From contig OZ037773.1 of assembly GCA_964035545.1 (NCBI GenBank), positions 5,193,251-5,257,250 on the forward strand: 64,000 nucleotides of DNA, in the 5' to 3' direction. Below are positions 6,688-11,356 of the stretch, one piece after another. How positions within the stretch are numbered: the first letter of the stretch is position 1; every line of letters starts with the position of its first letter. Made by a program: the position numbers and the translations under genes. Source of the DNA: Bugula neritina (lineage: Eukaryota; Bryozoa; Gymnolaemata; Cheilostomatida; Bugulidae). Under the pieces are notes generated by a model, which saw nothing but the letters and a program-made list of their open reading frames with translations, was not told where the DNA came from and did not search any database.

Positions 6688-9600
6688 TTATTTCTCGCAA
6701 ACATGTTTTCGAAATCCAGGAGTGCAAGTGTTGTCATACCAGACGAAGGTCGTGCGCATGATAAGACATGTTCCGAAGTTGTTGGGCCTCCCAGTCTCAA
6801 ATTTACTCATATCTAATGGGTCACCATTATCCCACTTCCATTCGCTGCCAACTTTAGTAGCACCCAACCATAGTTCGTGACTCCATGCTAAAAAGACAAT
6901 TGAAAAATTTAAAAATATATATTGGAATTTTGGGTAGCATGAGCTGCATTCGAAGCTGAGCTAAAAATAAGCCATGTTCAACAAAAGTGTTTGTGCAATG
7001 TATTGAAATTGCTAACAATAATTTTACACCACCTATCTGAATATCAGCCGTGTGATTATAAAAGCAACTAATTTAGTGCACTATACACACTTATAAACTG
7101 AAACAAATGTATGAAGGAAAGAGTACAAATATGCCGTTACATGATAGATTATATTTTACTTCAGTGCAATATATTCTAGCTGCAACCTGTTATAATATAC
7201 CATAAGGTTTCGCACTATCTATATACTCTATAGGCTACTGTCTACTCTATAGTGTATACTCTACACTATCTACTCTATATACTGCCTATACATACTTTAT
7301 GCTGTCTATACTCTATACTCTATACTGTCTACTCTATACTATATAATCTATAGTGTCTTTTGTATGCTATCTACTCTATAGTGTATACTCTACACTATCT
7401 ACTCTACATTATCTACTCTATAATACTGTATATACTCTATGCTATATACTCTACACTATCTACTCTACATTATATACTCTATAATACTGTATACTCTATG
7501 CTATATACTCTACACTATCTACTCTACATTATATACTCTATAATACTGTATACTCTATGCTATATACTCTACATATACTGCCTATACTTTATCTACTCTA
7601 CATTATCTACTCTATAATACTGTATATACTCTATGCTATATACTCTACACTATCTACTCTACATTATCTACTCTATAATACTGTATACTCTATGCTATAT
7701 ACTCTACACTATCTACTCTACATTATCTACTCTATAATACTGTATACTCTATGCTATATACTCTACACTATCTACTCTACATTATCTACTCTATAATACT
7801 GTATACTCTATGCTATATACTCTACACTATCTACTCTACATTATCTACTCTATAATACTGTATACTCTATGCTATATACTCTACACTCTCTATACTCAAC
7901 ATTATCTACTCTATAATACTGTATACTCTATGCTATATACTCTACACTATCTACTCTACATTATCTACTCTATAATACTGTATACTCTATGCTATATACT
8001 CTACACTATCTACTCTACATTATCTACTCTATAATACTGTATACTCTATGCTATATACTCTACACTATCTACTCTACATTATCTACTCTATAATACTGTA
8101 TACTCTATGCTATATACTCTACACTCTCTATACTCAACATTATCTACTCTATAATACTGTATACTCTATGCTATATACTCTACACTATCTACTCTACATT
8201 ATATACTCTATAATACTGTATACTCTATGCTATATACTCTACACTATCTACTCTACATTATCTACTCTATAATACTGTATACTCTATGCTATATACTCTA
8301 CACTATCTACTCTACATTATATACTCTATAATACTGTATACTCTATGCTATATACTCTACACTATCTACTCTACATTATCTACTCTATAATACTGTATAC
8401 TCTATGCTATATACTCTACACTATCTACTCTACATTATCTACTCTATAATACTGTATACTCTATGCTATATACTCTACACTATCTACTCTACATTATCTA
8501 CTCTATAATACTGTATACTCTATGCTATATACTCTACATATACTGCCTATACTTTATACTGTCTACTTTATACTGCCTATTGTATTTTTTAAATGCAAGT
8601 CAATATTGTTTTTTTTAATATATTAATATAGATATATGTTTATACTATAGCAGACTGAAGGAAAAGATAAAAGAGAATGAATAACAGAAAGTGCTGGGTT
8701 TTATAACAGGCTAAAAAGTTAGCTATTTTGTAGTAGCTAGAATCATAGTATCCTAATAAAGAAAACATAATGGAGCTAACATAGCTATGATAATATAGGT
8801 GAAACTGTAATTATTCAACAAGCTTTCCAAGCTCATGTAATGTCCCAACAATTATATTAGTTAGGCTATTAAAAATAGTTCAACAAATAAATGACACACA
8901 AATAAAATGAGGCTTGGTTTGTAAGTGAGCTTTAGCCCACATCCAGATTCTAGGATATGGAAAATCAGCATTTCCTTATAGGATGGAAAGTCAGCATTAA
9001 CTTATAAGCTATAAACCACAACTATCGCAACTTCTGGAGCTTATTTACTATTTGCAGAAGTGTTGGTGTTAATAACAGTCTAACTGTACACCTGATACAC
9101 TCACATGGATCTGAGGCTACTAGCATCTGATACCACTCATAGACCTCTTCAGTGTTTAACATGAGGAGAGAAGCTCCAACAGATTGGCAGTTGGAAACAG
9201 CGGCATTCCTGTTCCCACTTGACGGCCATAACTTGATGCAAGTCTCCTTAACAGGGTTTACTGTCCATCCTGCTTCACATACAATGCTTCTGAGCTCTGC
9301 AACATAACATAAAGCTTTTATCACTTTGGCATACTTCACCAGATTTCAACATATCCCAAATCATTCCAGTACAACCCCAAACTATTCCAGCACACCCTCA
9401 GACTATTCCAGCACACCTAAACTAGTACTCCAGCCCCCCCTCAAAACCACTCCCGCACACCCTATACCAGATTATAGCTCACCCCCAGCATATATTCCTC
9501 TGCAACACGATAAAGGCTGCATCATGGGCAATGATATATATATAGATTGAGATATTATGCTCTCACTCAATGCTCAGCAATGACATTCAGTGATTGAGCT

Positions 9601-10761
9601 CTCTCACCATGGCCACAAACTCAAGCTGCTAGCATTTTGCAAGGCTCGTGACTCCTAGGTGACCCCTAGAGTCACTTGAGCTCTCTGGCTTGAGTTTACA
9701 CACCTTTTAAATATGATTTAGTAGAAACATAAGTTTCTACTATTGCGAAGGTGTGAGCCATGGTACTCTGTTCTGTGCTGACGAGGGGACAAACCCCGAA
9801 ACAGCTGCTGTCCACAGATTGAGGTATATATATATATATATATATATATATATATATATATATATATATATATATATATATATATACTATATTATAGAAA
9901 TAATAAAAGCTCACCTGTGTCATACACATCAGAGTAACCATTATCAGTATCTGATGAGCTCACATAAGTGTTGTACTTGGACCAGAAACATTCCTGAGTA
10001 GAATTCTTATAAGCAAAAGATTTACAGCCAGTATTTCTCAGACAGAGTTTTGCACATCTGGAGACAGAACTGAGTGAAACTGAAGTTGGACTCACTAAAA
10101 CTCGGTCTGTGGTGTTCAGATGTAAGTACAGGTTGTCTATATTACCAGAAACCTAAAAAATGAAACCTGAAATTATTAGTAATATTACCAGTAATTATCA
10201 TACTATAAACCTACATAAATTGATCACCTTCCACCGCCGTGGTCCTGCGCGGTTGGCAGGAAACCTACATAAATTATTATTCTGAAATAATATCTTTTGT
10301 TGTGCTTATATACACACCACACATACACACACACACCCCACACCCCACACCACACACCACACACCCCACACCCCACACCACACACCACACACCACACACC
10401 ACACACCACACACCACACACCCCACACACCACACCACACACCACACACACACACACACACACACACACACACACACACCACACACCACACACCACACACC
10501 ACACACCACACACCACACACCACACACCACACACCACACACCACACACCACACACCACACACCACACACCACACACAAAAATAAAGGTGAAGTCATTCTA
10601 CCTAATTTCACTCCACTAATAGTGTATGAAAAAAATTGTAATTTCTGCATAAAAAGGCAACACTTCAAATCAAATAAAGGATATAATAACCGAGTTACCT
10701 TGCATGCACTGAGTACTAATAGCATCAGTGAAATACGTAGAATACTCAGGGACATCAACAT
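6688..10761 (-). CDS. Secreted PAN + C-type lectin protein (gene B, RPN variant)
   Basis: Complement join 10699-10761, 9915-10152, 9105-9296, 6688-6887; 230 residues, phases 0, 1, 1. Residues 1-21 (MLMSLSILRISLMLL...) are a convincing signal peptide. The 238-nt second exon encodes the PAN domain ([15 protein letters not shown]). Exons 3-4 encode a complete lectin domain: CEAGW near the start, NTEEVYEWY, WLGATKVGSEWKWDNGDP, then RPN at 198-200 where most family members have EPN or QPD, and a WYD in place of WND. The cysteines are intact, but the altered Ca2+ site makes sugar specificity unclear. The largest intron (6888-9104) is swollen by a 59-bp minisatellite; the PAN-lectin intron contains a hammerhead-ribozyme repeat on the opposite strand; intron 1 contains (CACACC)n. 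Start chosen at the first ATG giving the signal peptide. Confidence 0.85.
7200..8570. repeat. 59-bp minisatellite with higher-order structure
   Basis: The core is a 59-bp unit beginning TATACTCTATGCTATATAC, repeated about 20 times with few changes; edges (7200-7420 and 8540-8580) are degenerate. A 61-bp variant containing CTCTCTATACTCAAC recurs 238 bp apart (59+61+59+59), so four-unit blocks have been copied together. It lies in the last intron of gene B. Confidence 0.95.
9350..9472. repeat. Degenerate minisatellite around ACTATTCCAGCACACC
   Basis: Three to five diverged units of about 20 bp containing ATTCCAG followed by CACACC or TACAACC, in the PAN-lectin intron of gene B. No coding signal supports the overlapping 74-codon open frame. 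Confidence 0.6.
9544..9823 (+). mobile_element. Hammerhead-bearing short repeat, copy 1 (retrozyme-like)
   Basis: About 280 bp, bounded on both sides by TA-rich sequence and closely similar to 11088-11356. It encodes no protein. Its 3' end is a type I hammerhead ribozyme; its body contains nested inverted repeats (for example AAACTCAAGC with GCTTGAGTTT, CACACCTT with AAGGTGTG, GTGACTC with GAGTCAC). The left edge at 9544 reads AGATTGAG, the same bases that follow the ribozyme cleavage site at its right edge, as expected if monomers were once joined head to tail. It lies antisense inside gene B's PAN-lectin intron. Known animal and plant retrozymes are short non-coding retroelements with hammerheads that circulate as RNA; assignment here is by structure only. 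Confidence 0.75.
9766..9823 (+). ncRNA. Type I hammerhead self-cleaving ribozyme, copy 1
   Basis: All invariant core bases are present: CTGACGA at 9778-9784, GAAA at 9798-9801, and GTC at 9810-9812. Stem II is GGGG/CCCC with loop ACAAA; stem III is ACAG/CTGT with loop CTG; stem I is CTGTG/CACAG (9773-9777 with 9813-9817), then an internal loop TGTT/ATT and an outer CTC/GAG helix. Cleavage is predicted between 9812 and 9813. The short stem III is like that of hammerheads in retrozymes and Penelope-like elements, which often need dimeric folding. Confidence 0.88.
9824..9887. repeat. (TA)n microsatellite after hammerhead copy 1
   Basis: Pure (TA)n directly abuts the outer stem I strand of the ribozyme, as it does after copy 2, so the microsatellite appears to belong to the element rather than to chance. 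Confidence 0.92.
10309..10577. repeat. (CACACC)n / (CA)n microsatellite
   Basis: Alternating CACACC and CA runs over about 270 bp in the first intron of gene B. It produces long spurious open frames on both strands (HTPHTT and CGVWCV repeats). Confidence 0.97.
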
Positions 10762-11046
10762 TTTCTAGTATAGATTTTGAAAGTCAATTTCTAAGAGAAT
10801 TATTATAACACATCAATCTGTCTAAGTGGTGCAGTTCTTTGTAAGTTTTGTTGTTGTTCTACAAAGTAGTATGGAAAAGCTGTCGATATGTAAAAAGTAT
10901 GAAATTATTGATTTTTCAAAAAGAAATCACAGATCCGGAAATTATCCCAATGCAAAGAAGTGAACCCCATATTGCTAGAAATTATATATGTAACTAGATA
11001 AGTGGTATATACATACACACATATATATAAATACATACCGTATTGT

Positions 11047-11090
11047 ATATATAATATATATATATATATATATATATATATATATATATT
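11047..11090. repeat. (TA)n microsatellite before hammerhead copy 2
   Basis: Uninterrupted (TA)n immediately upstream of the body of the second hammerhead repeat. Confidence 0.9.
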
Positions 11091-11356
11091 ACGCTCTCAT
11101 TTAATGCTCAGCAATGACATTAAATGATTGAGCACTCTCACCATGGTCACAAACTCAAGCTGCTAGCATTTTGCAATGCTCGTGACTCCTAGGTGACCCC
11201 TAGAGTCACTTGAGCACTCTGGCTTGAGTTTACACACCTTTTAAATATGCTTTAGTAAAACTATAAGTTTTACTATTGCGAAGGTGTGGGCCATGGTACT
11301 CTGTTCTGTGCTGATGAGGGGACAAATCCCGAAACAGCTGCTGTCCACAGATTGAG
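11088..11356 (+). mobile_element. Hammerhead-bearing short repeat, copy 2 (retrozyme-like)
   Basis: Second copy of the 9544-9823 element, about 270 bp, same orientation, lying about 330 bp upstream of gene B's start codon and antisense to it. It has (TA)n on both flanks. Differences from copy 1 are scattered substitutions, several of them paired so that hairpins are kept: the stem at 11254-11274 (AGTAAAACT / AGTTTTACT) and the stem at 11098-11126 (CATTTAAT / ATTAAATG) differ from copy 1 on both arms. No protein coding. Confidence 0.75.
11299..11356 (+). ncRNA. Type I hammerhead self-cleaving ribozyme, copy 2
   Basis: Core CTGATGA (11311-11317), GAAA (11331-11334) and GTC (11343-11345) are intact. 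Stem II is GGGG/TCCC, in which one copy-1 G-C pair is replaced by a G-U wobble, so pairing is kept. Stem III is ACAG/CTGT with loop CTG; stem I is CTGTG/CACAG plus outer CTC/GAG. Predicted cleavage lies between 11345 and 11346. Confidence 0.88.

What the first reader, a model, noticed from the sequence alone, without database searches (positions are those of the whole stretch)
9544..11356. Two short elements ending in intact type I hammerhead ribozymes, bounded by (TA)n
Seen: every invariant hammerhead base, three helices and the GTC cleavage triplet are present at 9766-9823 and 11299-11356, in two diverged copies 1.5 kb apart that both sit between TA tracts. Known: retrozymes and Penelope-like elements carry hammerheads with short stem III. 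Inference: this is a retrozyme-like or hammerhead-SINE family whose RNA can self-cleave and circularise. The microsatellite seems to be part of the monomer, because AGATTGAG, the sequence just after the cleavage site, is also found at the left edge of copy 1.
Basis: partly seen in the sequence, partly recalled or inferred. Interest (0 to 1): 0.9.

Follow-up and report, generated by a model that had tools for sequence, protein, structure and literature searches.

The report
Self-cleaving RNA element inserted at TA-repeats
Two small mobile elements in a moss-animal genome each carry an intact hammerhead ribozyme motif, belong to a family of several hundred copies, and sit at TA-repeats in a way that suggests how such self-cutting RNAs get copied back into DNA.

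Summary
The hammerhead motifs are real: two matches to a three-helix motif in the window, against 0.005 per shuffled window, and 531 genome copies of a 31-nt core against 0 for the reversed pattern. Rfam does not report them. The host is Bugula neritina: nine chromosome lengths match. The element is an animal (non-LTR) retrozyme with a 272/271-nt monomer; the 66 arrays read hold 0.2 to 5 units.
Their 3' end lies about 11 nt past the cleavage site and runs into (TA)n of 16 nt or more in 60 of 66. The 5' end varies and shares TA microhomology. Copy number rises from 289 to 531 from 5' to 3' along the monomer.
Best reading: target-primed reverse transcription of circular (or uncleaved multimeric) RNA, started on a TA tract, probably by a resident Penelope-like element, whose copies abut TA at 7 of 9 readable ends. 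Cleavage, circles and enzyme are inferred. The kind is known; the junction record is what is new here.

The parts
9544..9823 (+). Retrozyme copy 1: one full 272-nt unit plus 5 nt of the preceding turn (5' end at monomer position 268)
9766..9823 (+). Type I hammerhead ribozyme motif of copy 1; predicted cleavage after GUC between 9812 and 9813
9825..9886 (.). (TA)n directly 3' of copy 1: inferred insertion target / primer tract
   Evidence: genome-wide pattern
9534..9544 (.). Short TA stretch 5' of copy 1
11086..11356 (+). Retrozyme copy 2: one unit of the 271-nt subfamily (5' end at monomer position 4, ATATTACGC)
11299..11356 (+). Type I hammerhead ribozyme motif of copy 2; predicted cleavage after GUC between 11345 and 11346
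11054..11089 (.). (TA)n 5' of copy 2
11357..11477 (.). (TA)n directly 3' of copy 2

Best explanation
This is a recently active non-LTR (metazoan) retrozyme family of the bryozoan Bugula neritina. Transcripts are cut by the type I hammerhead and ligated into circles of about 272 nt (both inferred). A Penelope-like reverse transcriptase/GIY-YIG protein (inferred) nicks a (TA)n tract. The free TA 3' end pairs with the short R-U-A-U stretch at the far end of hammerhead helix I, about 11 nt 3' of the cleavage site, and primes cDNA synthesis. The enzyme runs round the template for a fraction of a turn up to about five turns, and the 3' end of the cDNA is joined to the other side of the target, often through 1-4 nt of TA microhomology. 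This gives arrays with one fixed 3' end and ragged 5' ends. Shown: the ribozyme motif, fixed 3' end, ragged 5' ends, TA flanks, microhomology, low divergence, and co-resident Penelope-like elements at TA tracts. Inferred: cleavage, circles, the identity of the enzyme, the order of steps.
For: 531 core copies at <=2 mismatches, 0 for the reversed control. Of 69 BLAST clusters in 80 loci, 66 end at monomer position 271-273; the other 3 are two small fragments and window copy 2 cut by a locus end. 56 of the 66 read TTGAG(A/G)TATATA or TTGATATATATA there. TA of >=16 nt: both sides 39, right only 21, left only 1, neither 5 of 66, against 0.67% of window positions. 5' junctions facing TA share 1.94 nt on average with the tract against 0.69 expected (31 arrays, 0 of 100,000 resamples; 18 distinct breakpoints away from the unit joint, p=1e-5). 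Copies rise along the monomer: 289, 320, 442, 531, the gradient expected of 5' truncation. 5' ends at the hammerhead 5' terminus: 1 of 66, so run-off on cleaved linear RNA is rare, which fits a circular or uncleaved template. Resident Penelope-like element P1: a Penelope-type RT motif matches at 28 places, 25 at E<=0.001 (not all are P1); P1 has RVT_1 at E 1.4e-10, GIY-YIG at E 7.8e-5, 23.3 bits against a cut-off of 22.6, its own hammerhead-like core with the cut 26 nt after the ATG (read by eye) as in Anolis PAc (PMC11167929), and 7 of 9 readable upstream boundaries at TA. Cervera and de la Pena name PLEs as a strong candidate to move animal retrozymes (PMC7229834).
Against: No RNA data: neither cleavage nor circles shown. 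Minimum-energy folds of the 66-nt pieces and of one 272-nt unit are not the hammerhead fold. Rfam is silent (rang in none of its controls either). PAc was reported to start at sites not homologous to the cut DNA, and hammerhead mutants did not change its insertion, so TA-paired priming on a ribozyme-made circle differs from the one purified PLE I read of. No sequence shared between P1 and the retrozyme was shown. Other RVT_1 reverse transcriptases are abundant, were not classified and were not tested for TA ends. One array mixes both subfamilies (L046), which one circle alone would not give. Five of 66 arrays have no TA of >=16 nt on either side.
Confidence: 0.7

Rival explanations
1. Same element and same target-primed route, but moved by a LINE-type enzyme rather than a Penelope-like one.
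For: RVT_1 reverse transcriptases with long open frames are plentiful (150 of 2124 candidates scored, 150 matches); I did not sort them into LINE, LTR or other. Fixed 3' end and 5' truncation are also LINE hallmarks (recalled).
Against: Penelope-like P1 copies end at TA tracts (7 of 9 readable); P1 and family B also carry hammerheads. No repeated pattern of target-site duplications (31 arrays tested), though L032 shows a possible 19-nt one.
Confidence: 0.2
2. The (TA)n is made by the element (reverse-transcriptase slippage on its U-A-U start site, or later expansion), so TA is a tail and not the target.
For: TA on the right only in 21 arrays against left only in 1 of 66 (p=1.1e-5). Six of the 7 TA tracts of >=16 nt in the window lie in TA stretches that border retrozyme or family-B sequence.
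Against: TA is also on the left in 40 of 66 arrays, which a 3' tail alone does not explain; 5' junctions use TA microhomology. The two may both be true: elements seed tracts that later copies land in.
Confidence: 0.25
3. A transcriptionally silent satellite spread by DNA recombination between TA tracts, with the hammerhead a passive relic.
For: TA tracts can recombine; some loci are palindromic or duplicated (L029, L011/L012).
Against: Polar 5' truncation, fixed 3' end, matches on all nine chromosomes, near-identical copies at distant loci. The ribozyme stretch fits a strict regex in 62 of 65 last units, but many loci were chosen by ribozyme match, so this carries little weight.
Confidence: 0.04
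4. The first reader's reading that the microsatellite belongs to the monomer.
For: TA of >=16 nt follows the 3' end in 60 of 66 arrays.
Against: No TA tract at the unit-to-unit joints read; spacing is 271/272 nt without TA.
Confidence: 0.02

Closest known systems
Metazoan non-LTR retrozymes (Cervera and de la Pena 2020, PMC7229834; abstract, first third of Results and Discussion read)
   Same: [quoted passage not shown] circular RNA shown there for coral and mussel elements and stated for salamanders and newts.
   Different: Here the 3' joint is fixed 11 nt past the cleavage site and lies at (TA)n, with no clear target-site duplications; that paper mentions duplications longer than 4 bp 'when present', and the terms microsatellite, dinucleotide, TA-rich and integration do not occur in its main text (supplement not seen). 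Circles not tested here.
Penelope-like elements, e.g. Poseidon PAc of Anolis (PMC11167929, main text read)
   Same: Internal start of reverse transcription downstream of a hammerhead, AT-rich target, tandem copies; the resident P1 element has the cut site 26 nt after its ATG as PAc does.
   Different: The retrozyme has no ORF and a hammerhead with a 4-bp helix III; its start site looks homologous to the target (TA), whereas PAc's was reported as not homologous.
Plant LTR retrozymes (PMC4918200, seen in listings only; described in PMC7761336, passages)
   Same: Non-autonomous, hammerhead-bearing.
   Different: Plant ones have direct repeats of about 350 bp read as LTRs, a PBS, a PPT and 4-bp duplications; none seen here.
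MuTAnT, TA-microsatellite-targeting Mutator-like DNA transposons of Medicago (PMC4486113; title and start of abstract in the listing)
   Same: Preference for TA microsatellites.
   Different: DNA transposons, not retroelements.

Membership tests
Hammerhead ribozyme (type I) | CUGANGA, GAAA and NUH at the junction of three helices, open ends in helix I | tested here: met
   shuffled control 0.005 per window
Hammerhead ribozyme (type I) | Match to Rfam hammerhead models | tested here: not met
   none; none, and none in its control genomes, so the test has little force
Hammerhead ribozyme (type I) | Self-cleavage of the RNA | not testable with these tools
   needs in vitro transcription
Metazoan non-LTR retrozyme | Tandem repeats of about 150-450 bp each with a type I hammerhead | tested here: met
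   271/272-nt spacing, up to five units in the loci read
Metazoan non-LTR retrozyme | G+C below 50%, no protein-coding capacity | tested here: met
   45.6% and 43.2%; no stop-to-stop frame of >=150 aa over the copies, a weak test for so short a unit
Metazoan non-LTR retrozyme | Expressed as circular and linear monomer RNA | not testable with these tools
   no RNA data at hand
Metazoan non-LTR retrozyme | Target-site duplications, when present, longer than 4 bp | tested here: inconclusive
   31 arrays with little left TA searched: a possible 19-nt duplication in L032 and a TA-rich 17-nt share in L077, otherwise short or TA-rich chance shares or none; duplications inside TA cannot be seen
Penelope-like element (as the retrozyme itself) | ORF with telomerase-like RT and GIY-YIG domains | tested here: not met
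   the unit is 272 nt and has no such frame; P1 at other loci has RVT_1 and GIY-YIG

The most novel reading that the evidence does not exclude
TA microsatellites in this genome are a shared, self-renewing landing pad for hammerhead-bearing retroelements. At least three families (the retrozyme, Penelope-like P1 and family B) start reverse transcription on TA tracts at short U-A-rich sites placed just downstream of their ribozymes. Insertion leaves more TA, and later copies land there. The retrozyme does this by rolling reverse transcription round a ribozyme-made RNA circle whose helix I presents the start site.
Probability: 0.3. Interest if true: 0.8.

Novelty: new member of a known kind. Interest (0 to 1): 0.58.

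Why it matters
In the parts that I read of two papers on animal retrozymes, the way ribozyme-made RNA circles get back into the genome is a model, and I saw no junction data. Here 66 arrays, with near-identical units among those compared, record the start and stop of reverse transcription at base resolution and point to a primer (TA tract) and a likely enzyme (Penelope-like) that can be tested in a sequenced marine animal.

Tried and rejected
Rfam scans found nothing useful; I take the top rows as TA-driven chance matches. MAFFT misaligned the hammerheads of different families, so no covariance model was built. A search for target-site duplications in the 31 arrays with little left TA gave no repeated pattern; one possible 19-nt duplication (L032) stands. 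Flank-against-flank BLAST for empty sites showed no clean empty site in the part of the output that was printed; the output was cut. Pfam GIY-YIG over the whole genome rang once (that place, L081, was not studied) and missed P1, so it says nothing about absence; the GIY-YIG match of P1 appeared when its last 208 aa were scanned alone, not with the whole frame. Family B shows no Pfam GIY-YIG; calling it Penelope-like rests on my reading of its residues. Paper searches for Penelope-like with TA microsatellite and hammerhead ribozyme with bryozoa found 0 papers; by title, none of the papers listed (25 of 451; 15 of 727; 15 of 22) is about TA-targeting retrozymes. These cover open-licence PMC papers only. 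Two papers wanted were not held.

Rows dropped before counting: 3 of 69 BLAST clusters (a 30-nt and a 61-nt fragment, and window copy 2 cut by a locus end), leaving 66. These 66 are not all independent (L011/L012 look like duplicates; three clusters lie in one palindromic locus, L029). They were picked by full-length BLAST and by ribozyme matches, those listed being on C1 to C3 and those fetched from C1 and C2, so elements lacking the ribozyme could be missed; the count gradient was run to meet that.
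Full report
Host. The window is G000:C9:5193251-5257250 of a 215.8-Mb genome. Contig lengths C1 to C9 equal the nine chromosome lengths of Bugula neritina tzBugNeri2.1 (35.64, 33.58, 32.42, 24.8, 17.72, 16.05, 15.81, 13.35, 10.88 Mb; PMC11480708, passages read). Totals differ slightly (215.8 Mb in 295 contigs against 216.00 Mb in 320 scaffolds). The COX1 on C295 reads through TGA, and by my reading against a recalled COX1, AGA and ATA fall where Ser and Met are expected, which fits an invertebrate mitochondrial code.

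The ribozyme. Both copies have helix I of 6 bp, helix II of 4 bp around loop ACAAA, helix III of 4 bp with a 3-nt loop, CUGA(C/U)GA, GAAA and GUC. The two differences between the copies inside 9766-9823 fall at the free position 7 and in helix II as C-to-U opposite G, which keeps a G-U pair (sequence). Beyond helix I an asymmetric internal loop and a short outer helix CUC/GAG follow, and the fixed 3' end of the element lies there. The energy model does not put the core into the hammerhead fold. One 272-nt unit as a whole is strongly self-paired (-108.6 kcal/mol, z -7.14).

The family. A 280-nt query found 82 matches with only 40 of 688 candidates scored. A 31-nt ribozyme pattern found 531 with at most 2 mismatches (264 forward, 267 reverse; reversed control 0). 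Two subfamilies differ at C/T in helix II: 41 units C, 24 T, 3 undecided of 68 compared. Mean divergence is 1.1% within C, 2.4% within T and 5.1% between; some units on different chromosomes are identical. The family was therefore active recently.

Anatomy of insertions. From L001 to L080, BLAST gave 69 clusters; 66 end at monomer position 271-273, and the other 3 are two fragments and a copy cut by a locus end. Lengths of the 66 run from 48 to 1361 nt. At the 3' end they read TTGAGGTATATA 31, TTGAGATATATA 15, TTGATATATATA 10 and ten single variants. TA of 16 nt or more is on the right in 60 and on the left in 40 of 66 (both 39, right only 21, left only 1, neither 5; a stricter measure gave 58 and 35). 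Only 0.67% of window positions have such a tract at hand. 5' ends are spread over the unit, with 17 of 66 in the 16 positions around the unit joint (expected 3.9). Where the left flank is TA, the joint shares 1.94 nt with it against 0.69 expected (31 arrays). Along the monomer, copy number climbs: 289 at positions 61-91, 320 at 108-138, 442 at 193-223 and 531 in the ribozyme at 227-257, each with a reversed control of 0.

What follows. A fixed 3' end, ragged 5' ends and a copy-number gradient are the signature of target-primed reverse transcription. Because the fixed end lies only about 11 nt 3' of the cleavage site and yet arrays contain the uncut site and up to five units, the template must be circular or an uncut multimer. 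Only 1 of 66 5' ends is at the ribozyme-made 5' terminus, so run-off on cleaved linear RNA is rare. That favours circles but does not prove them.

The likely enzyme. [quoted passage not shown] Upstream lies CTGAAGATGGGTACAGTGGTACCCGAAATATC|AGTG, which I read as a minimal hammerhead with the cut 26 nt after the ATG, the distance reported for PAc of Anolis (PMC11167929, main text read). Of 13 P1-like loci, the upstream boundary abuts TA in 7 (L084, L087, L088, L089, L091, L093, L094), does not in 2 (L085, L092), and cannot be read in 4 (L082, L083, L086, L095). The tract at L087 is short. Two tail ends 36 nt apart by my count are seen (L084 versus L089/L093), like the two start sites of PAc. A further family B has a canonical hammerhead (L014, L024) and ends at TA in two places. 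Its open frame upstream (L014:1-810) looks GIY-YIG-like to my eye, but Pfam does not confirm it.

Known and new. Metazoan retrozymes are known (PMC7229834: abstract, part 1 of 3 of Results and the Discussion read). Those authors suggest that a primed circRNA is copied by an RT of an autonomous element such as a LINE or PLE; the terms I looked for on insertion sites do not occur in the main text apart from two mentions of TSDs in one passage. The present family is a new member; its TA landing sites and its start and stop record are the new part. Whether other animal retrozymes do the same was not tested.

Open points. Whether right-only TA (21 of 66) means tail synthesis or loss of left TA is undecided. 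One array (L046) holds one unit of each subfamily, which suggests template switching or a nested insertion. Other reverse transcriptases of the genome were not examined for TA ends. RNA work is needed for cleavage and circles.

Noticed in passing
window 3208-3492: TA tracts enclose a short piece of family-B tail: an inverted stretch (AATGTAGTGTGTTCAGATTGTTAATGATACAT, the reverse complement of the B end in L014) and a direct end (GACAATCAGCATACAT) that runs into TA (my reading).
   Followed up: partly
L014:1054-1090 (+) and L024 (reverse strand): A second, canonical hammerhead family (B) about 500 bp from retrozyme arrays; in L014 its 3' end and the retrozyme 3' end face each other across one TA tract.
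   Followed up: partly
L032:1846-1880 (+): A third hammerhead-like motif with 8-bp helix I and GUA cleavage triplet; element not identified.
   Followed up: no
L046 (C1:19014116-19014715): Array with one unit of each retrozyme subfamily.
   Followed up: no
L029 (C5:9208046-9208762): Cluster of short ribozyme-end fragments in both orientations around TA tracts.
   Followed up: no
L041 flanks and L012 right flank: Another repeat with inverted matches that also borders TA tracts beside the retrozyme; possibly one more TA-bound family.
   Followed up: no
G000:C6:11174072-11175412, C17, C196, C65: Further COX1 matches: one on chromosome 6 scoring almost as high as C295 (nuclear copy?) and others on small contigs, perhaps from cobionts.
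   Followed up: no
window 10312-10576: (ACACACC)n array of about 38 copies between the two retrozyme copies.
   Followed up: no
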